Shown: positions 2,684-41,100 of the stretch, one piece after another
Numbering within the stretch: position 1 is the stretch's first letter
Layout: each line of letters opens with the position of its first letter
Assembly (NCBI GenBank): GCA_020696345.1
Contig: JAEHCK010000004.1
Location: 22,916 to 86,915, forward strand
DNA length: 64,000 nucleotides
Direction: 5' to 3'
Source of the DNA: Thermoplasmata archaeon
GTDB lineage: Archaea > Thermoplasmatota > Penumbrarchaeia > JAEHCK01
The notes under the pieces: model-generated
What the model was told of the DNA's origin: nothing
The model's database searches: none
The model's input: the letters and a program-made list of their open reading frames with translations, nothing else
Position numbers and translations under genes: made by a program

Positions 2684-3871
2684 ATGATGCGAGACGCCAA
2701 TGCTTTCATGAAAGATGAATATAATGAATTAGTGAAGAATGGTTTTGATTGGAAAATACGAATATTACAGGGCCCATCCGCACCAGTATGTAATGTTGAT
2801 GGAAAAGAAGTAATTATGTTGTGTTCGAATAACTACTTGAATCTGAGTAACCATCCAAGGATCATTAATGCTGCAAAAGAGATCTTGGACACTCACGGCG
2901 CAGGTTCGGGCTCGGTGCGGGCAATTGCCGGCACCATGGATATCCATATACAAGCAGAGAAAGAGTTGGCCAAGTTCAAGGGCACGGAATCGGCATTGAT
3001 CTATCAGACCGGTTTTGCCGTGAATGCAGGTTTGATACCGCAATTGGTCGGTAAAGGTGATGTGATAATTTCCGATGAATTGAACCATGGCAGTATCATT
3101 GATGGTGTAAGGCTTACAAAGGCGGACAGAATGGTATTTGCACATAATGACATGGGCGAATGTGAGAAAGTTCTGCATGAAGCCGACAAAAAGGGCTATC
3201 GCAGGATCCTGGTCATCACCGATGCGGTATTCAGCATGGATGGCGATATCGCCCAGATGGATAAGATCGTAAAATTAGCCGCTGAGGTCGGGGCAATGAC
3301 CTATGTTGATGATGCACACGGCGAGGGTGTGATCGGCCCTGGTGGCCGCGGGATCGGCGCACATTACGGTATCGAGGGCAAGATCGATGTTGAGATGGGT
3401 ACGTTTTCCAAAGCCTATGGTGTTGTCGGCGGTCTGGCCGCAGGCAGCCAGGATCTATATAATTTCGCTCTTAATAAATCAAGAACCTGGTTATTATCTG
3501 GCTCACACCCACCGCAGGTGGCAGCTGCACAGCTGGAAGCGATCAGGGTTCTAGAAGAAGAACCCCAACATGTGAAGAACCTGTGGGATAATACGAACTA
3601 TTTCAAGAAGGAATTAGTTGGCATGGGCTTTGATTGCGGCCACAGCGAATCACCTATCACACCGGTGATCTGCGGTGAGAGCCACCTGGCCAAGAAACTC
3701 AGCGATAGGATGTATGAAGAGGGTATATTTGCCCTACCTATAGTATTCCCGATGGTGGCGCGCGATAAAGCACGGATACGTACCATGATGAACGCAGGTC
3801 TGACTCGCGAACATTTGGATAAAGCTCTGGCTGCGTTTGAGAAACTCGGAAAAGAGCTGAAAATAATTTAA
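2684..3871 (+). CDS. kbl: Glycine C-acetyltransferase (2-amino-3-ketobutyrate CoA ligase), PLP-dependent
   Basis: NNYLNLSNHPRI, YVDDAHGEGVIGPGGRGI, GTFSKAYGVVGG (PLP Lys); directly downstream of tdh. Confidence 0.9.
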   Translation: MMRDANAFMKDEYNELVKNGFDWKIRILQGPSAPVCNVDGKEVIMLCSNNYLNLSNHPRIINAAKEILDTHGAGSGSVRAIAGTMDIHIQAEKELAKFKGTESALIYQTGFAVNAGLIPQLVGKGDVIISDELNHGSIIDGVRLTKADRMVFAHNDMGECEKVLHEADKKGYRRILVITDAVFSMDGDIAQMDKIVKLAAEVGAMTYVDDAHGEGVIGPGGRGIGAHYGIEGKIDVEMGTFSKAYGVVGGLAAGSQDLYNFALNKSRTWLLSGSHPPQVAAAQLEAIRVLEEEPQHVKNLWDNTNYFKKELVGMGFDCGHSESPITPVICGESHLAKKLSDRMYEEGIFALPIVFPMVARDKARIRTMMNAGLTREHLDKALAAFEKLGKELKII

Positions 3872-7100: not shown

Positions 7101-8979
7101 ACGTTCGCGTTCCTTCATTTTTTGGCGTCCATTCTACACGAATTTCACGGCTGTCCTTACCTGGGATCGTATCCGAGCCATTGCCAATGAGTTTGTCATT
7201 TTCGAAAAAACTAATCTTTGCATTTCTGGCATCTGCCGTGCCGTTGTTATGTATTGTAGCTTTGATAGTAACGGGCATGTTCTGGGTCACGGTCTCACTG
7301 GACAATGATACATCGGTGGTTTCCAGAGATAGGTCTATTATCACATGTGATATCACTGCACATTCAATGATAACATCTAGAAATCCATCATTATTGACAT
7401 CACCTGCCGCTGGTGTTGACCACAGCTCACGACCGGTTTGGGCAAATGTAATTTCCCAGAGATCTGTACCGTTCTCGCCGCTGACCGCATAAATGTCCGG
7501 TGATGTGGTGAAGATCACATCCAATTTATTATCTGTATTAACATCAGCGAGAATGGGTGAACCGATGGCACGTTCATTAGTGTACAGCGGTGGCATACCG
7601 ATCGTATCCTTTACAATGTGCCAGAGTAAAGAGCCATTATTTCCATGGAAAGCATAAGCATGTGTTATTGGACCCAAAGTGCCAAGACCCCATGAGATGA
7701 TAACGATCTCCGGTATATCATCGCCATCTAGATCACCGATCGCGGGAGTGGCCGCGATATGGCCGTAGATAAAATTCTCAGGGGTCGACCAGAGTAAAGT
7801 GCGATTGTTATTATAAACATAAACACGACCATTACCCAAGTCTTCATAGGGTGTACAGATTACCAGCTCGAAATCATTATTTTTATTCCCATCAAGTTCG
7901 GCAGCGGCAGGTGAAGGTATCAGATCGGGGGTTGGGAGTGTATTAATATTGTAATACAGGACATCCAACCTGTTTCCTGATGGTGATTGAGCATCAAAGA
8001 AACTTGCTGAGTAGTTATAATTTGTGATGTTAAATGCAGTTATTAAAACATTTTTCTTTGTTCCATCTTGATAGACAATTGGAGTTGAAACCATATTGCC
8101 AGGTAATGTCTGGTTCCAGAGTTCATTACCCGTTTTGGTCGATAATGCAAAAAGTTTATTACTGGCACTCACTACCAGATCGAGATAATCATCCTGGTCG
8201 AGCAATGCAAGAACCGGTGACGAATGTGTGAAGTTCTCACCAGTGGATAATTGCCAGACCCTATCCGAATTCACATTGTTACTGCTCCAATAATAGCCAT
8301 CCGAGCTGTCATAATTGGACTCGGGTTCATACATGAACAGGTTACCGTCCGTGGTTCCAAAGATTATGTCCAGTTGGTCATTGTTATCAAAAAAACCTAG
8401 TGTGGGAGAAGTATATACAAGATCATTATCTGGCAAGCTATCTATAAGATCAGCATTAAGGCGCCAGACATAGTCACCATTGGCGCCATCGACAATATTG
8501 ATGAATCCGTCCTCGGCATATACCACATGTTGCACATTTCGTCTATTTCCACCCGGCCAAACGATATTGTTGGAAAAGTTGCCTATTGTGGTTCCCCATG
8601 AATCGATACCAAAGCCCACGATCTTATTATCATTCCAGCCATCCCAGCGTATTGTAGGTTCATAGATGCCTTTGTTTATTTGGTCGGCAACGTGAGAATG
8701 AGACATATCTTTACCGAACATGGGCCACGCAGGTTCGATCGATCTTGAGAGACGGGTGCTGGTGGGCGGTTGATACACTAATACGGCATCTTGATCAGCT
8801 GTAATTTCTTGGTCGAGTCCCTGTTCCAGGTTAACCGTAAAAGACCCAGAGCTAGGTTGTGCAAAACTGGCCATCGAGACGATGAACCCTTCAAACACAA
8901 CAGAACACAGGATGAAAATTATTACCCAAAACATACAATGTTTATTTGGCCGGTTAAAAAGTCCAGCAGGCATGATCAC
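4168..8979 (-). CDS. Large secreted/membrane-anchored protein: FG-GAP/VCBS-like propeller repeats, CARDB-like repeats, C-terminal TM helix and charged acidic cytoplasmic tail
   Basis: 1603 aa; N-terminal signal; repeated 'GDLDGDDIPEIVI'/'DVNNDGFLDVII' motifs; repeated 'NNENNNE' CARDB endings; TM 'WILLIFFVAIIIIVFLVL'. Confidence 0.8.
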   Translation of the reverse strand: MIMPAGLFNRPNKHCMFWVIIFILCSVVFEGFIVSMASFAQPSSGSFTVNLEQGLDQEITADQDAVLVYQPPTSTRLSRSIEPAWPMFGKDMSHSHVADQINKGIYEPTIRWDGWNDNKIVGFGIDSWGTTIGNFSNNIVWPGGNRRNVQHVVYAEDGFINIVDGANGDYVWRLNADLIDSLPDNDLVYTSPTLGFFDNNDQLDIIFGTTDGNLFMYEPESNYDSSDGYYWSSNNVNSDRVWQLSTGENFTHSSPVLALLDQDDYLDLVVSASNKLFALSTKTGNELWNQTLPGNMVSTPIVYQDGTKKNVLITAFNITNYNYSASFFDAQSPSGNRLDVLYYNINTLPTPDLIPSPAAAELDGNKNNDFELVICTPYEDLGNGRVYVYNNNRTLLWSTPENFIYGHIAATPAIGDLDGDDIPEIVIISWGLGTLGPITHAYAFHGNNGSLLWHIVKDTIGMPPLYTNERAIGSPILADVNTDNKLDVIFTTSPDIYAVSGENGTDLWEITFAQTGRELWSTPAAGDVNNDGFLDVIIECAVISHVIIDLSLETTDVSLSSETVTQNMPVTIKATIHNNGTADARNAKISFFENDKLIGNGSDTIPGKDSREIRVEWTPKNEGTRTLKVIIDPENFIEENNENNNEISKEIFIEASYPDLAIEDVKYYRGDGKEVDNDNLHLIEDENATINITVKNIGADVAENIKVRVLDSNLPIDEVKEITDLDLKESKWLIYVWRPELGSHDLKVQVDFGNTIEELNETNNEHKDLVIVNSKDPTNLDFKCDGRVFQPEDNEPAVGVEVVFKNNRTGSQKSTTTNSTGYYSIDLKTLPDQYQEGDEIIIHASDGENESTIKFNIYSEDKNRFDNLTLVMVPTYAITLSVDSSSKVVYPNEEITYDIIITNRGNKENTVNLSLSEIKDVQSSQSTSDWNAYLNEYMVRNIPPRSSQGGIVLTLKAPQKNDQARALDQVLVAVTAKSVFDPKQMDILGMTTTVGRVYDFILDLDETEYDLDPFENQTVEFGVDIKNNGNDDDIGIIDLDMPENWNAKYNDTIELLLGEEKRVEIILECDIFVGAGDQIINIQVSSIDGKGNTSTQLTVNILRPDLKFFNDVTMTPSDPKLSEVITFDANIYNNGSSYVAACIVEFRVDGSAYESKIVYNLSADDFEQISFQWTPTDAGEYLLEFEIDPDNNIIEADTENNIFELELEFKVDVALLNKPVFSKDNPVEGERIKISITVDNIGSVDITKSFQIDFYDGEPSMGGKRFARYTLNDDLTAGDDVIITVSWKTTGGGRQHTIYVEANPEINFTENDYDNNAITATIQISNKPRSEEFGDYTSWILLIFFVAIIIIVFLVLTPSKHPSSSRSGQYKNKYKGKGKDKGKAKPKDRIKHSEKRKTMVKDLKKGVKFIELGAETEEEPEKDEEEELEVNELGRVEPESIRRGEGSVSKIEDKVARKSTTKSLKEPPKTRKSHPSPNLVDTVTERLTGLFGGLGKGKRPLQSKSESKTKKDKIAVEVEEVETVPEVVEEIEEIEVDVAEVLVIGDGEDGTEAEVVEVEELEYDDGEDEETKKKRKTVRSINNRNGKSKKESGLDYSHMIGIR

Positions 8980-9138
8980 ACCGCAATTTGATATGGTAAA
9001 GGCATAAAATAATTAATTTGCCAGGCCACCTATCCCTATCTTATCTATAATAACTGAATAGATTAATAGTAATAATCTTTAACTACTATATTTATTTTAC
9101 TGATTAACCACTGATTAACTAACATAGGGGTATTCGAA

Positions 9139-9603
9139 ATGGCGACGGACATTGAGGCAGGTTACGAGATCTTTGACCATACTGCAGATATTGGTATCCG
9201 AATGTATGGTAATTCGATTCCAGAATTATTCGAGCAAGCGGCAATAGGCATATCCGCCGTGATATTCCACGAGTCAATTCCAAAAATCGAGCTGAAAGGC
9301 AAATATCGCATACAACTTCAAGCAGGAGATCTTGAACAATTGTTGGTAGACTGGCTGAATGAATTACTATTTATTTTCGTTACTGAACATATTGTGTGCT
9401 CTGAATTTCAAATTGCCATTGAAACACCAAATACACACAAGAAAATTAACACAACGGTTTATTCGTTAGATGCCTATATGTCAGGCCAGATTATATCTGA
9501 TGATATGTTGATGAGCACCTGCGAGATCAAAGCGGTGACTTATCATATGTTATATATAAAGAAGACCACACAATGGGAAGCGCAAGTGCTGTTTGATATA
9601 TGA
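9139..9603 (+). CDS. Archease (tRNA ligase cofactor family)
   Basis: 'YEIFDHTADIGIRMYGNSIPELFEQAAIG...' and 'LLVDWLNELLFIF' archease motifs. Confidence 0.9.
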   Translation: MATDIEAGYEIFDHTADIGIRMYGNSIPELFEQAAIGISAVIFHESIPKIELKGKYRIQLQAGDLEQLLVDWLNELLFIFVTEHIVCSEFQIAIETPNTHKKINTTVYSLDAYMSGQIISDDMLMSTCEIKAVTYHMLYIKKTTQWEAQVLFDI

Positions 9604-9610
9604 CAATTTG

Positions 9611-9795
9611 CTGAATTGATGCTGAACAGATACCGGGCTGGGTTTGTGATGAACAGATACCGGGCTGAGATTGTGATGAACAGATACCGGGCTGAGATTG
9701 TGATGAACAGATACCGGGATGGGTTGATTTCTGGAATTTATTTTAAAAGCTAGGTATCTGTCAATCAACAATCGATCAAAGCATCTGTCAATCAA
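9611..9795. repeat. 27-bp tandem array plus conserved core and partial opposite arm
   Basis: GATGAACAGATACCGGGCTGAGATTGT (27 bp) repeated ~4x; core CTGGAATTTATTTTAAAAGCTAGGTATCTGTCAATCAACAAT is the reverse complement of the core at ~23,440. Confidence 0.85.
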
Positions 9796-9885
9796 TAAAA
9801 AATCAAGACTACGTCTCTACAATAACTCTGCTTGACTACAAAATAGCAATATTATAGCTTGATATGATAAAACAGAAAACTTCAA

Positions 9886-10278
9886 TTATGCAATATTCTT
9901 TGAGATCAAAATAGCATTAATTACCCCGTGCTGCCCTGGACGCGAAGTCACTCTTGCTGTGCCCACTTCGGTTTCGATAATTGCACCTTTGTTAATGATG
10001 TTTCTTCGGACATAAAAAGGATTAGCATTATTTTCTATGACGGTCAGGATCTTTGTTTTTTTGGACTTTTTCGTTTTTGGATCAATAATATTGGCAACCT
10101 CAGCACCCACTAATTTCATTTTAACATTATCTCCACGAGTGCGTATTTTCATTGCTTTTGTTTTATCCACGGTTGTAAATAGTTTCTCGCGTCCGATCTC
10201 AAAAGGGCGTTTTTTACGGTGTAGGCGGATCCTACCGCCTGATACCTTTTTTTTCGACCGTCCTTGCCATTGTGCCAT
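9886..10278 (-). CDS. rps8e: 30S ribosomal protein S8e
   Basis: [31 protein letters not shown]...[47 protein letters not shown]. Confidence 0.95.
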
Positions 10279-35684: not shown

Positions 35685-36959
35685 TTACACACTCGGGTCT
35701 TCTACCTTCCCCATGAACAGAATTTGACCTGTCTCTTTGTGCTGGATAAAGAAGATGAAAGGGTGGTCGGCTTTGAACTCGATAGGTTGTGGAGAAGAAG
35801 ATCCTCCACCTCCTTTTTCCTGCATCACCACAGCCGTAGCTGCTGCTGCTTCTGTGCCTTCCTCGTTGACCTCAACAAAGGACTGGTGAATGACTTTATC
35901 TATATACAATTCAGTTTCCGACGTGATCCCTGAAAAGTCAGCTCCCATTCCGAAAGCGGTAGGCATCCCCATGGAGATGAGCTTATCTGCCAGGCGATAC
36001 TTTTGTTCGAACTTGAACTTTGGAAGGTATAGATCGACCCACTCCCCACTAATCTTATCCTTCAGGTCGTTCAGATATGTATGATCGAGTTTGGACTCAA
36101 GTGATGCAATATCATTCTCTTTTGGGAGCATAATATACATAGAAAGTTCTTCATCTTTGTAGGGTAATTGTAGTAATTGTGTATCAGAGTTGCTTGCATA
36201 ATTGAGTTTTTTTGATTCATCGCACATATGCATCATGTCTGTCATGGTCTCCCCACTGCTCGAATTATAGAAGTTCATTTCATTTGTTGCGCTTTCGTCG
36301 AACTGATATTTCCAGTCTGACTTGAAATATATCGCATTGGTCAGTATCAAATAAGTTAGTACGTTTATATCACTTGGAGATAGCAGGTCATTGATCTTCT
36401 CATTGGTCTCTTTCTCAACCCAGTCATTGATCGTATCAACAGAACCGGCGGGGTCGCCGACGAAGTCTAGTTCTTGACCATGTGCCAGGTAACACGACTC
36501 AATTACATTCTTGTAATCCGCATCTATATTCCTTCCTTGTTTGAGCCAATAGGCATTCGCTGTTGAGAGCTCGTATGTGGTGCCATCTTTATTCAACTGA
36601 CTTTGTAAAGACTTGACCATGCCCCATCTGGCCTGGTCGTCTTCCGGGAAGTCCAATACCTGCACCATTTCGGTAGCCGTCTGTCCTCTGGCCCCTTCGA
36701 AGGCCATGCCAAGAGCAATGGAAATACTGTATGGTGAAAAGAATACGTTCTCATCTGAATCAATTAGCTGTTTATACATCTGAAAAGTGAATTCGTTACT
36801 GCTGTTGACAAATTCGTTCATGCCTTTATTGATAACCGAATAAGTAGGGTGAATCGGTTCGTTGTCATCCTCATTATCATTATATTCAGTACACCCAGCC
36901 GCAACAACTACAGCAACTAGCAACAAGGCCACGAACATGTTCGGGAGTGCCTTTTTCAT
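35685..36959 (-). CDS. Serpin lipoprotein (serpin 1)
   Basis: Lipobox 'VVAAGC'; EEGTEAAAATAVV hinge; 'FKADHPFIFFIQHKETGQILFMGKV'. Confidence 0.92.
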   Translation of the reverse strand: MKKALPNMFVALLLVAVVVAAGCTEYNDNEDDNEPIHPTYSVINKGMNEFVNSSNEFTFQMYKQLIDSDENVFFSPYSISIALGMAFEGARGQTATEMVQVLDFPEDDQARWGMVKSLQSQLNKDGTTYELSTANAYWLKQGRNIDADYKNVIESCYLAHGQELDFVGDPAGSVDTINDWVEKETNEKINDLLSPSDINVLTYLILTNAIYFKSDWKYQFDESATNEMNFYNSSSGETMTDMMHMCDESKKLNYASNSDTQLLQLPYKDEELSMYIMLPKENDIASLESKLDHTYLNDLKDKISGEWVDLYLPKFKFEQKYRLADKLISMGMPTAFGMGADFSGITSETELYIDKVIHQSFVEVNEEGTEAAAATAVVMQEKGGGGSSSPQPIEFKADHPFIFFIQHKETGQILFMGKVEDPSV

Positions 36960-37158
36960 TTTATCACCAATAACATAATCCTATTATGTGCATATAAAAA
37001 GATTGGAACAGTTTTAATACAATTACATAATCCTAATATTGACCGATGAATGCCTATATTTTTTGCATAGACTAAATTGTGATCGAAAGTTTAATAAATA
37101 ATTGGGTGTGCCTACGCTTTTTACTCTCCTATAATGGTCAACCTTTCAACACGATTTT

Positions 37159-37268
37159 AGATAACGGCTCGCGGGTATGCGAACCAGCCGAATATAAACG
37201 TTTTCTAAATAAAGGCAATTTAGGCGGAAAACCTGCAAGGTCTGGAGCCGTATACCCGCTTGTTGTGC
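37159..37268 (-). repeat. attC-like recombination site A (downstream of radical SAM gene)
   Basis: Minus strand GCACAAC-AA-GCGGGTATACGG ... GCATACCCGC-GAGCC-GTTATCT; starts ~14 bp after the stop codon. Confidence 0.65.
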
Positions 37269-37282
37269 GAAGTTGCCTAAAA

Positions 37283-38200
37283 CTATACCAAACCATAAAT
37301 CTGCCTCGGTGCAAGGTATTGTGGGAATCTATTTAAAAGATTTAAACGAAGAAGAAAACAAAGATGGCATTCGTCAACATACTTATCCTCATGTTTAACA
37401 TTGTATTTTTTAGCTAAAAAAGCAGGACCTCCTTTAACCAATGGACCACAAATTGGGTGTATATCGGCGTTGTAGCTCTTAACAAGTTTTGACAACGGAG
37501 TCTTCCACATATTGCCCATACTCAGTCCCTGACAGAGATGAACGTTGCCATATGGATCAAGGTGAACTCTCTTTGGTTCTTTCAAATCTTCATATGGACA
37601 TTCTGTTAGTTCTTCCCAAAATTTTTGTGGAAGTCCTTCTACTAATTTCTCAACTGCTCTACCTCTAAACACAACACCACCACTGACAATTGGCTCTCCT
37701 GTACTCAACTTATTTTTAATGTCTGTCCTGACCGTAGGTTTCTCAATACAAATAGGCTTAGCTAGTATGCCCAATCTTTTTGCCGCAGATAAAGATCGTT
37801 TAGCTGGATTATCTTTTTCATTTTCATAATGGAACAGATCATCACTTACCCGAAAATCAGATATATCCAATTTGTTGAGAGGGTCCAGCCAAAGTTCTGC
37901 ATCTTCCTCAGATGTTGCATAATACCCATTAGTTACTACCCCCACTTTGAATCCAAGGTTACGAGCAATTTTAACTCCTTCAAGCATTATTGGGTAAAAC
38001 AAAAATGGTTCACCACCTTCAAAGTATATCCATTCTATTGTTCCAATTTTGACTGCTTCATCAAGAGCCTCTCGTACCTGTCTCAAAGTGAAAGTCCCTT
38101 TAGCATCAGGTCCACTATATACAAAACAATCATCACATTTTAGATTGCACATATAAGTTAGAAGAAAATGAATTCCCGTTAACATGAGATTCCTCCTCAA
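37283..38200 (-). CDS. Radical SAM protein
   Basis: YMCNLKCDDCFVYSG (CxxxCxxC), EGGEPFLFYP; strong GAGGAGG SD before ATG. Confidence 0.9.
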   Translation of the reverse strand: MRRNLMLTGIHFLLTYMCNLKCDDCFVYSGPDAKGTFTLRQVREALDEAVKIGTIEWIYFEGGEPFLFYPIMLEGVKIARNLGFKVGVVTNGYYATSEEDAELWLDPLNKLDISDFRVSDDLFHYENEKDNPAKRSLSAAKRLGILAKPICIEKPTVRTDIKNKLSTGEPIVSGGVVFRGRAVEKLVEGLPQKFWEELTECPYEDLKEPKRVHLDPYGNVHLCQGLSMGNMWKTPLSKLVKSYNADIHPICGPLVKGGPAFLAKKYNVKHEDKYVDECHLCFLLRLNLLNRFPQYLAPRQIYGLV

Positions 38201-38216
38201 TTAAATATCGGCAATT

Positions 38217-38305
38217 TCGTAACGGTTGGCGAGTATCTGAAGTTTGCGTAGCAAATTTGGGTCGAGCGAGTGCAGCGAAGCGAACCGTATACCCGCGTGT
38301 TATAT
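38217..38305 (-). repeat. attC-like recombination site B
   Basis: Minus strand ATATAAC-AC-GCGGGTATACGGTTCGCTTC...GATACTCGC-CAACC-GTTACGA; interior homologous to site C. Confidence 0.65.
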
Positions 38306-38408
38306 TCTTTTTTCCGAAGGAAAAAATGAGCCATAGTCTGCAAAATGGTTTTGTCGAAGGTAAAAAATGGCGAAGAGTCAACGGAAAAGACAGTAAGAAA
38401 ATCAGATA

Positions 38409-38852
38409 TTATTTTAGTTCACAAGCAACTAGATCGTCAATAAAAGAACGTGTTTTTTTTAAATTTTCTGTAAAACTTTGTGGATATTGGTATAATGGTG
38501 TCCTATCAACACCATGTTCATCAAAATATTCTCCACCTTCTCTAATTGTCCTTCCTTCACATAATGTTTTTGCTATCTTATTACAAAATTGTTTAAACTC
38601 TTCACCTCTACCATGTCTAAACAAGTATAAACCTAATGTTGAAAGTTTGGTACTATAATGCCTAATGCCATCTATACCTGGGCCATCATCTTCACCATAA
38701 CTTTCTATATCTTCTGGAATTTGGCTTATTGCACTTTGTATTTCCAAATACTTTTGTTGCCCAAGTATTTCTAAAACATTATGTGTAAGCGATTTATCTA
38801 ACCAATTAAAACCTGCCCGTTCTACTTTTTTCTTATTGTTTGATTGTTTCAT
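38409..38852 (-). CDS. Hypothetical cassette-like gene product (147 aa)
   Basis: Complete ORF between sites B and C on the same strand as flanking cassette genes; no family recognised. Confidence 0.65.
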   Translation of the reverse strand: MKQSNNKKKVERAGFNWLDKSLTHNVLEILGQQKYLEIQSAISQIPEDIESYGEDDGPGIDGIRHYSTKLSTLGLYLFRHGRGEEFKQFCNKIAKTLCEGRTIREGGEYFDEHGVDRTPLYQYPQSFTENLKKTRSFIDDLVACELK

Positions 38853-38929
38853 ACTAAATATAAATAAGATTGTATTATTTAAAACTTCATTTTTTATCGA
38901 TATAATAATTTACCTTCTCCGTCGATTGA

Positions 38930-39025
38930 ATATAACGGCTGCGGATATCTGAAGTTTGCGAACCTAGTGAGCAAATTTGGGTCGAACGAGTGAAACGAAG
39001 TGAGCCTGATATCCGCATGTTATAT
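38930..39025 (-). repeat. attC-like recombination site C
   Basis: Minus strand ATATAAC-AT-GCGGATATC ... GATATCCGC-AGCC-GTTATAT; perfect R (7 bp) and L (9 bp) arms. Confidence 0.7.
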
Positions 39026-39120
39026 GACCGAGCCGAAGGCGAGGCAAGGAAACTGAAGGTTTTCGTAGAGTTGCCCGCATTTTTGGGCTGTGTGCCCTTT
39101 ACTTTCTTCCCATTCTCATT

Positions 39121-40374
39121 TCATTTTGTTGGATCAATAACTCTGCCTAAGAATAATATATTTCCCGATTCTCTATCTTGTATTATAAATATGAATGGGT
39201 GATTTGCATAGAAGCTGATGGAAGGAGCGCTTATAACCATAACACCTCCAGTTGCTGCTGCAGCTTCTGTACCTTCTTCATTCACCTCAATAAAAGCTTG
39301 ATGAATTACAGAACTAATAAAAAGATTGTTTGTGCCATCCATTCCCGAAAAATCTGCACCTGATGAAAAAGCTGTTGACATACCCATTTCTTTTAGTGTT
39401 TCAGCCATGTAATATTTGGTTTCAAACTTAAATTTTGGTATGCTAATATAAACTTCTTGCTCCGTGAAATTATTTTTCCATTCGTTGAGTTTTTCTAGAC
39501 TAATAGATGCTTCAATCGAATCAAGATTGTCTGCTTTTGGTAAAAGTATATGCATAGACAATTCTTCGCTTTCGTAAGGCATTTCAAGAATCTGTAGTTC
39601 ATCTGTCTCTGCATAATTGAAGTTTTCAGTTAAACTCATCATTGGGACTTTAACTGTTTTTTCAGAGTTTATTTTGAAATCTTGTTCCCATGTATTGTTT
39701 TCATCAAACTGCTTAACCCAGTTACTTTTAAAATAAATTGCATTAGTAAGTACGAGCCGTGTCATTTGATCAATATCACCCTTTTGAATCAAATCCTTAA
39801 TCTTATTGCTTGTTTGCTCTTCCACCCAAGCATTAATCGTCTCACGAGATTTTTCAGTTTCCCCTATAAAATCAAGATTAGTTGCTTTTCCTCCATAATA
39901 TTGTTCTATTAGATTTAAATATTCTTCTAAGAACTGATAATTCTCATGAGCCCATAATGCATTCGCTGTGTGAAGTGTATATTCTTTATCTTTTTTATTG
40001 ATCTGAGTATAGATATTAACAAAATCAGATCTTCGTGTATCGTTATCTTCTGGAAAATAAAGTACCGACCCCATTTCTTCTTCTGTTTGACCTCGGGCAC
40101 CTTCATAAATCATTGCTAAAAGTACTGACATACTGTATGGAGAAAAAAAGATATTTTCTTCTTTATCTTTAAATTCTGAATAAAGATCAAATGCAAATTG
40201 AGTGGTAGCATTCACAACACTACTTGCTCTTTCCGGAGTTATTTCGCTGTCATCTGTTTTAGGTGTTGGTTGTTTACTATTGGGTGTTGATTGTTTAATA
40301 CAACCACACAAAAAGATATTTGAAATAATTGCAACGATTACTATTATTCCTATTGCTTTAATTTTTCGATTCAT
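39121..40374 (-). CDS. Serpin lipoprotein (serpin 2)
   Basis: Lipobox 'FLCGC'; EEGTEAAAATGGV hinge; 'FYANHPFIFIIQDRESGNILFLGRV'. Confidence 0.92.
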   Translation of the reverse strand: MNRKIKAIGIIVIVAIISNIFLCGCIKQSTPNSKQPTPKTDDSEITPERASSVVNATTQFAFDLYSEFKDKEENIFFSPYSMSVLLAMIYEGARGQTEEEMGSVLYFPEDNDTRRSDFVNIYTQINKKDKEYTLHTANALWAHENYQFLEEYLNLIEQYYGGKATNLDFIGETEKSRETINAWVEEQTSNKIKDLIQKGDIDQMTRLVLTNAIYFKSNWVKQFDENNTWEQDFKINSEKTVKVPMMSLTENFNYAETDELQILEMPYESEELSMHILLPKADNLDSIEASISLEKLNEWKNNFTEQEVYISIPKFKFETKYYMAETLKEMGMSTAFSSGADFSGMDGTNNLFISSVIHQAFIEVNEEGTEAAAATGGVMVISAPSISFYANHPFIFIIQDRESGNILFLGRVIDPTK

Positions 40375-40484
40375 TTATAAATTAATAGGTCTCAGTAGTA
40401 TATAAGGTTAATTAACTTAGTATTACACATCCTGACGGGCACACAGCCTTTTTTATTTTTCCCTCTTGAAATGCGGGCGATTTC

Positions 40485-40542
40485 ATATAACTCGAATTAT
40501 GGGTATAATACGTTCGCTTAACCCCTGTAATTTGAGTTATAT
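40485..40542. repeat. attC/attI-like palindromic site D
   Basis: ATATAACTCGAATTATGGGT ... ACCCCTGTAATTTGAGTTATAT; 24 bp upstream of recombinase fragment ATG. Confidence 0.55.
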
Positions 40543-40566
40543 GACCACCTTGCCCTATATTCCTAC

Positions 40567-40767
40567 ATGAACTTTGATAATAAAAATATTTGCCCTCAAT
40601 ATCCACAAGCCCTGATTGGGAAACTCCATGAAGAATTAACCCTGAGAAAATATTCAGCTCGAACCAGTAAATTATATGCCTCCATCATTGAACGATTCCT
40701 AGGATATGGAAGATCTCCAAGAGAATTCTTGTTGCTTCGCTCAGATAAAAGCAGGTCCACCATGTGA
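40567..40767 (+). pseudogene. N-terminal fragment of a tyrosine recombinase (SAM-like/core-binding domain; IntI/Xer type)
   Basis: LIGKLHEELTLRKYSARTSKLYASIIERFLGYGRSPREFLL matches 'LRxxxYSxRTxxxYxxxIxRFLxxxxxxxPxE'; truncated at 66 aa, no catalytic domain. Confidence 0.65.
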
Positions 40768-40844
40768 GTGTAAGAGTGTGTGAGTGTAAGAGTGTGTGGG
40801 TTTGGGAGTGTAAGAGTGTAGGAGAGTAAAAGAGGGATGATAAA

Positions 40845-41100
40845 ATGGTTTTAATAAAAAAATTTGAAGAAATTGAAGCATATTGCAGAAGGTTTTGCAA
40901 GAAGATCTAATCGTGAATTTAGACAATTCTTGGATTATGCTCATGGATCATGTGCTGAGGTTCAATCAGCATTATATGTTGCTTTTGACCAGAAATATAT
41001 TTCACAACAGCAATTTAAAAATATTTATAAACATACTGAAGAGATCTCAAGAATGATCACTAGTTTTTCCATTTATTTGCGTAATAAAATTGCCAAGTGA
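40845..41100 (+). pseudogene. Four-helix-bundle (23S rRNA intervening-sequence-type) protein, degenerate with internal deletion/frameshift
   Basis: Frame 1 gives MVLIKKFEEIEA, frame 2 continues HIAEGFARRSNREFRQFLDYAHGSCAEVQSALYVA; the helix between is missing. Confidence 0.7.

What the first reader, a model, noticed from the sequence alone, without database searches (positions are those of the whole stretch)
37159..40767. Integron-like gene cassette array in an apparent archaeon: attC-like sites after each same-strand gene plus a divergent tyrosine-recombinase remnant
Seen directly: three minus-strand genes (serpin 39121-40374, 147-aa unknown 38409-38852, radical SAM 37283-38200) are each followed in the same orientation by a 90-110 bp imperfect palindrome with TAAC...GTT cores and a short 5' / longer 3' spacer asymmetry (AAC-2 nt-GCGG...CCGC-4/5 nt-GTT). 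A fourth, shorter palindrome (D, ATATAAC...GTTATAT) lies 24 bp from the start of a divergent ORF resembling a tyrosine-recombinase N-terminal domain. Gene + attC units with a divergent intI next to the first site is the defining integron layout. The cores are GTTAT/GTTGT rather than strict GTTRRRY, so this may be a divergent site family. With the recombinase truncated, it would be a CALIN or dying integron.
Basis: partly seen in the sequence, partly recalled or inferred. Interest (0 to 1): 0.93.

Follow-up and report, generated by a model that had tools for sequence, protein, structure and literature searches.

The report
Archaeal integron with a different integrase
This stretch of an archaeal chromosome is a real gene-cassette array of the integron kind, with its own attachment site and a broken integrase; intact relatives of that integrase sit beside similar arrays in many archaea and lack the insert thought to define integron integrases, so archaea appear to run integrons on a different enzyme.

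Summary
Sites A-C form one structured family: a model built from them alone finds about 30 more in this Thermoplasmatota genome. Site D is an attI-like site, present nine times. Each cassette runs from a GTTA core to its own hairpin, and the hairpin's 5' box complements the start of its own cassette rather than the adjacent 3' box (15/29 perfect against 0/29; replicated 17/28 against 1/28), as in a class 1 integron: the footprint of circular cassettes joined at G|TT. Related loci lose homology at that core. The 66-aa ORF is the N-terminal relic of a recombinase found whole beside divergent arrays in many archaeal phyla; it forms one clade apart from XerA and IntI and lacks the IntI insert. A second insert-less type has attI downstream of its gene. 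Sampled cassettes carry Gabija, restriction-modification, DSR1, TIR and toxin-antitoxin genes. Integrons in archaea are known (Ghaly 2022) but were called by IntI and attC models; this integrase family, its attI sites and the boundary evidence appear new in the papers I could search. Nothing was tested at the bench.

The parts
37165..38222 (-). cassette 3: radical SAM gene (37283-38200) plus site A
   Evidence: bounded by GTT cores of sites B and A; PF04055 E=4.8e-11. Own-start complementarity not kept (GTTGTGCGA against GTTACGAAA); the start looks as if two bases were lost
37156..37271 (-). attC-like site A
   Evidence: R1/R2 family member; one of the three sites R1 was built from
38223..38935 (-). 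cassette 2: 147-aa orphan ORF (38409-38852) plus site B
   Evidence: R'' of B complements own cassette start GTTATATTC 9/9, in-place R' GTTACGAAA does not; no Pfam match
38214..38308 (-). attC-like site B
38936..40490 (-). cassette 1: serpin gene (39121-40374) plus site C
   Evidence: R'' of C complements own start GTTATATGA at D 9/9; PF00079 E=3e-125
38927..39028 (-). attC-like site C, best-scoring member of the family
   Evidence: 112.9 bits (R1, by construction), 99.3 bits (R2); bottom strand folds more stably
40483..40544 (-). site D: attI-like site (palindrome ATATAACTC...GAGTTATAT); crossover inferred at AAC 40489-40491
   Evidence: nine copies in the genome; six compared: right side 86%, left side 33% identical; head of an array in 6/6
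40486..40640 (+). attI plus leader repeat unit (155-bp query)
   Evidence: 81-94% identical copies on C170, C74, C67, C189, C230
40567..40767 (+). N-terminal relic of the type A integrase (66 aa)
   Evidence: 55% identity to the intact G066 protein over the aligned part; no intact copy in G000
40864..41100 (+). 23S rRNA-intervening-sequence-like four-helix protein that follows the integrase relic
   Evidence: PF05635 E=2.4e-20; in-frame fusion of relic and this protein on C74

Best explanation
The region is the head of a decayed chromosomal integron in a Thermoplasmatota archaeon. D is the attI-like site. Serpin, the 147-aa ORF and radical SAM are three gene cassettes captured at D, each ending in its own attC-like hairpin (C, B, A). 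Capture and excision are inferred to work by a tyrosine recombinase (type A) that binds the folded bottom strand of the hairpin and joins it to attI, or to another hairpin, within the GTTA core, via a circular cassette. Shown by sequence: the site family and its stem, cassette limits at GTT, the circularisation footprint, attI polymorphism, one-way orientation, and linkage to one recombinase clade. Inferred: that this recombinase is the enzyme, that the folded bottom strand is the substrate, and that in this genome cassettes now move only if an enzyme comes from elsewhere or from an unassembled copy. The recombinase is not an IntI: it lacks the IntI insert.
For: Own-start test: 29 site pairs in five genomes, matches to own cassette start 113/145 against 57/145 in place, 15 perfect against 0, permutation p about 1e-5; replicate in named archaeal contigs 114/140 against 60/140, 17 perfect against 1, p about 5e-5. 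In a class 1 array the same comparison gives 7/7 for cmlA1 and qacL (sequences, compared by eye). attI breakpoints, including one at an attC-like site (L170/L247). R1, trained only on A-C, finds 31 sites in the genome-contig loci of the recombinase, 30 on the divergent strand and upstream, though downstream sequence is more abundant. 60 of 65 cassette ORFs of 80 aa or more share the site's strand. Bottom strand more stable in 60 of 63 sites. Type A clade 100/99 support. Archaeal contig: single-copy MetG 2.2 kb from the array, 63% to the same-order genome, about 50% to most of the same class.
Against: No recombination assay. IntegronFinder/HattCI could not be run, so standard attC model scores are unknown, and strict R boxes are rare (15/71 GTTRRRY). 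R2 does not find class 1 attC sites and canonical extrahelical bases were not shown. Several pairs fail the own-start test, including cassette 3 here. The R1/R2 alignments were fitted to the stem, so pair counts lean that way. The IntI comparison uses few IntI sequences (two in the tree).
Confidence: 0.88

Rival explanations
1. The arrays are integron-like, but the working integrase is another recombinase (the type B recombinase with an N-terminal extension, a true IntI elsewhere, or XerA), and type A is a passenger beside attI.
For: Type B copies in this genome (C13, C21) and in G066, G002 and G033 have attI-like sequence right after the stop codon, with own-start matches 9/9 (G066 C143; C21) and 8/9 (C13). 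Archaeal IntIs with the insert exist (PMC9668308).
Against: Type A lies directly at attI with a divergent array in over a dozen genome-contig loci across phyla and in more metagenome loci, and its leader and attI are conserved together. XerA forms a separate clade.
Confidence: 0.15
2. The hairpins are ordinary dispersed repeats (MITE- or REP-like, or terminators) that happen to follow genes.
For: Multi-copy, palindromic, gene-terminal; inner sequences are conserved within a genome.
Against: A transposed repeat predicts complementarity within one copy, whereas R'' matches the far end of its own gene unit. Breakpoints lie at the core, not at repeat ends. Sites are one-sided relative to the recombinase.
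Confidence: 0.03
3. The contig or array is bacterial contamination of the MAG.
For: Contamination estimate 6.2%; bacterial integrons are common.
Against: Single-copy MetG on the contig follows archaeal kinship. Same system in a single-contig 1.4-Mb genome of the phylum (G074) and in 43 archaeal-titled loci of 44 in a scan of one genome per species of bacteria and archaea.
Confidence: 0.02

Closest known systems
Integrons with IntI and attC (bacterial, and archaeal per Ghaly et al. 2022, PMC9668308)
   Same: attI next to a tyrosine recombinase, same-strand cassettes, hairpin sites with AAC/GTT cores, cassette limits at GTT, own-start complementarity, more stable bottom strand, many arrays without an integrase
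   Different: recombinase lacks the IntI insert (IntI4 residues about 181-240 have almost no counterpart); R box usually GTTAT rather than GTTRRRY; long L stem with two inner hairpins in 53 of 71 folded bottom strands; attI conserved as an inverted repeat
XerA (archaeal dif recombinase; PDB 4a8e, 5hxy)
   Same: domain plan, size, catalytic motifs; NF040815 just below its cut-off for two type A proteins (207 and 218 against 220 bits)
   Different: separate clade (100/100 against 100/99); type A is linked to attI and cassette arrays
Anti-phage cassettes of sedentary chromosomal integrons in Vibrio and Xanthomonas (from knowledge; PMC12409362 and PMC12444791 listed, not read)
   Same: defence and toxin-antitoxin genes carried as cassettes
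   Different: archaeal hosts, multi-gene cassettes up to about 6 kb, non-IntI recombinase

Membership tests
integron (as a working plan) | array of same-orientation genes each followed by a recombination site | tested here: met
   60/65 cassette ORFs on the site strand in 46 cassettes
integron (as a working plan) | attI site at the head of the array, beside a tyrosine recombinase gene | tested here: met
   D in 6/6 copies compared; conserved attI upstream of type A in many archaeal loci
integron (as a working plan) | cassette insertion/excision at the GTT core, via circles | tested here: met
   breakpoints and own-start complementarity; comparative evidence, not an assay
IntI-type integron integrase | IntI-specific additional domain near patch III | tested here: not met
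   TIGR02249 and IntI4 match in two stretches with the insert skipped; alignment to IntI1; all below the 265-bit cut-off
attC site | R''/R' boxes RYYYAAC and GTTRRRY | tested here: not met
   strict forms in 16 and 15 of 71; AAC and GTT cores in 68 and 68 of 71
attC site | imperfect hairpin with R and L stems and variable loop, bottom strand favoured | tested here: met
   covariation; bottom strand more stable in 60/63
attC site | extrahelical bases in the L arm that select the strand | tested here: inconclusive
   folds show spacer asymmetry and an unpaired base at the branch, no clear canonical pair of extrahelical bases
attC site | score in the IntegronFinder or HattCI models | not testable with these tools
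   models not available here; Rfam has no match
XerA | belongs to the XerA clade / passes NF040815 | tested here: not met
   separate clade; type A scores below the cut-off

The most novel reading that the evidence does not exclude
There is a broad class of integrons that run without IntI: tyrosine recombinases lacking the IntI insert (type A, divergent from the array; type B, with attI downstream) mobilise hairpin-ended cassettes across many archaeal phyla, and also on Bacteroidota plasmids and viral contigs, and are the missing integrases of most archaeal CALINs. The insert held necessary for integron recombination would then be one solution among others.
Probability: 0.6. Interest if true: 0.93.

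Novelty: new variant of a known kind. Interest (0 to 1): 0.88.

Why it matters
Ghaly et al. (PMC9668308) found 539 attC sites but only six IntIs in 75 archaeal genomes, so most archaeal arrays had no known enzyme. A recombinase clade found at conserved attI sites beside such arrays is a direct candidate. Because it lacks the insert, it makes testable how integron integrases arose from Xer-like enzymes and whether the insert is needed to handle folded cassette ends. The arrays also appear to be portable stores of defence genes in archaea, including uncultured lineages.

Tried and rejected
Rfam search of the region: no match. Site D as a fourth attC: rejected by R1. Scan of metagenomes with this genome's D sequence: none. 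Type A in viral contigs: none. A reference attC covariance model from class 1 plasmid cassettes was not built, because few distinct sites were recovered; they served as a positive control for the own-start test instead. Automatic attI calling misplaced L187 and probably L178, which lowers the reported totals. RNAalifold on the gappy site alignment returned no structure; the named-structure count was used. A wider phylum search for type B added nothing beyond G066 and G002 at its strict limit.

Full report
OBSERVATION. The window is C129:22916-86915 of a 4.97-Mb, 272-contig genome, 91% complete. Minus-strand genes serpin 39121-40374, a 147-aa orphan 38409-38852 and a radical SAM protein 37283-38200 are each followed by an imperfect palindrome. 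The three palindromes align with one another. A covariance model from these three alone (R1) finds about 30 further sites at E<0.001 in the genome; a model from 71 sites (R2) finds 35 at E<0.01. Across 71 sites the stem shows 74 cells with changes on both sides against 21.4 in shuffles, 91% of cells paired, and collapses when slid by one column.

HOST. Methionyl-tRNA synthetase lies 2.2 kb from the array on the same contig, is single-copy, and is 63% identical to the same-order genome and about 50% to most same-class genomes. One same-class relative, G005, is the record titled Candidatus Thermoplasmatota archaeon (contig of 137,602 bases). The host is therefore a Thermoplasmatota archaeon.

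SITE D IS attI-LIKE. D is not in the A-C family. A 155-bp query around it has nine copies in the genome. Six were compared: all lie between a divergent leader and an array of sites pointing away. Right of the AAC core these copies are 86% identical on average, left of it 33%. In the window, D is 40483-40544 and its core AAC is 40489-40491.

CASSETTE FOOTPRINT. If cassettes circularise at G|TT, the 5' box (R'') of a hairpin should complement the start of its own cassette, which in the array sits at the preceding site, and need not match the 3' box beside it. In 29 site pairs from G000, G005, G074, G033 and G024, five bases beyond the core match the own start in 113 of 145 positions and the in-place box in 57; 15 pairs are perfect against 0; within-genome shuffling gives a mean of 73 and p about 1e-5. 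Serpin and the 147-aa cassette match 9/9; the radical SAM cassette does not. An independent set from named archaeal contigs gives 114 of 140 against 60, 17 perfect against 1, p about 5e-5. In a class 1 integron array (L194) cmlA1 and qacL show the same pattern, 7/7 to the own start (sequences; compared by eye).

BREAKPOINTS. Five DHVE2-group genomes are 92-97% identical over 130 nt right of the attI core and 20-42% left of it. Pairs L205/L243, L216/L218, L259/L274 and L151/L167 lose homology at the core; L170 and L247 share attI and first cassette and diverge at the core of the first hairpin.

THE RECOMBINASE. The 66-aa ORF (40567-40767) is the N-terminus of a recombinase whose intact relatives are in G066, G074 and G005 (53-68% identity to the G066 protein). 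No intact copy is in the assembly, only N- and C-terminal pieces. A scan of one genome per species over bacteria and archaea found 44 loci, all with archaeal titles but one (WOR-3): Thermoplasmata, DHVE2, Aenigmatarchaeota, Nanohalarchaeota, Woesearchaeota, Pacearchaeota, Archaeoglobaceae, Geoglobus, Bathyarchaeota and others. R1 finds 31 sites in those loci, 30 on the strand divergent from the recombinase; R2 finds 35, 34 divergent (R2 was trained partly on these). In 80 metagenome loci 47 of 52 sites are divergent. Of 28 full-length genome loci, 10 contigs end within 300 nt upstream of the recombinase and 1 downstream; in the metagenome set the bias is weaker (26 against 18). The upstream attI is conserved across phyla.

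NOT IntI, NOT XerA. TIGR02249 and IntI4 (2a3v) match in two stretches that skip the IntI insert, and the alignment to IntI1 shows the gap. In a 34-protein tree type A is one clade (100/99), XerA another (100/100), with IntI (two sequences) and type B apart. Ghaly et al. required a match to the IntI-specific domain (PMC9668308), so these would not have been called. Another survey notes that the insert is not fully conserved in its integron-like subgroup (PMC8138268), and Escudero et al. describe the insert (I2) as the adaptation to single-stranded sites (PMC4792948).

A SECOND TYPE. Type B recombinases carry an N-terminal extension that I recognise as HARP-like from memory only. They occur in G066, G002 and G033, and as relics on C13, C21 and C201. 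Each has an attI-like sequence ending ..GTTA right after the stop codon, on the same strand. Own starts match the next site 9/9 (G066 C143), 9/9 (C21) and 8/9 (C13); these three were compared by eye. Type B also lacks the insert. Relatives of it in IMG/VR contigs have 33 weak sites, all divergent, and a Chryseobacterium plasmid shows similar co-oriented units; this extension is preliminary.

STRUCTURE. The bottom strand folds more stably in 60 of 63 sites and shows two hairpin loops in 53 of 71 (31 of 71 for the top strand). Strict attC boxes are rare: GTTRRRY 15/71, RYYYAAC 16/71, while GTT and AAC cores are each present in 68/71. I therefore write attC-like.

CARGO. In 46 cassettes (median 1.3 kb) 60 of 65 ORFs of 80 aa or more lie on the site strand. 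By profile they include a ThaI-type restriction-modification pair, GajA with GajB (Gabija), a WD40-Ras-like-TIR protein, PIN and MazE/PIN toxin-antitoxin genes, a Mrr-type nuclease, and elsewhere TmtA-like, DSR1 (1806 bits), ThsB-like, HerA and methyltransferase genes. These are profile matches on a sample of cassettes; defence was not tested and enrichment over the genome was not measured. The window's own cargo is a serpin, an orphan and a radical SAM protein; another serpin, 47% identical, follows the array.

MECHANISM AND CONFIDENCE. Integron-like cassette exchange at GTTA: about 0.9 or more. Type A as the enzyme for these arrays: about 0.75-0.8. Folded bottom strand as substrate: about 0.6, by analogy and fold preference. 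In this genome the platform is probably inactive unless an intact enzyme is unassembled or comes from outside.

LIMITS. The literature search covered open-licence full texts only, so novelty is judged against those; the supplement of Ghaly et al. could not be read.

Noticed in passing
L292 (C74) about 1398-1890; window 40567-41100: On C74 the integrase N-terminal relic is fused in frame to a 23S rRNA-intervening-sequence-like four-helix protein; in the window the same two pieces are adjacent but not one reading frame.
   Followed up: partly
L061 (C67) 2756-3847 and 9104-10194: Two 1.1-kb direct copies (85%) carry a ParB-like gene behind the attI leader in place of the recombinase; why attI leaders are joined to ParB-like genes is unexplained.
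   Followed up: no
L388 (Chryseobacterium plasmid NZ_CP041688.1) 4971-8410; L315, L325, L353, L381 (IMG/VR): Insert-less recombinases with attC-like units on a Bacteroidota plasmid and viral contigs.
   Followed up: partly
L060 end and L068 end (C45, C33): Two contigs end in the same 148-bp cassette end plus site (98.6% identical), so repeated cassettes probably break the assembly.
   Followed up: no
window 35685-36959: A second serpin gene just beyond the array, 47% identical to the cassette serpin, without a recognised site of its own.
   Followed up: partly
L066 (C129) 8514-10106: Another small array of sites lies just outside the left end of the window (C129 20513-22105).
   Followed up: no
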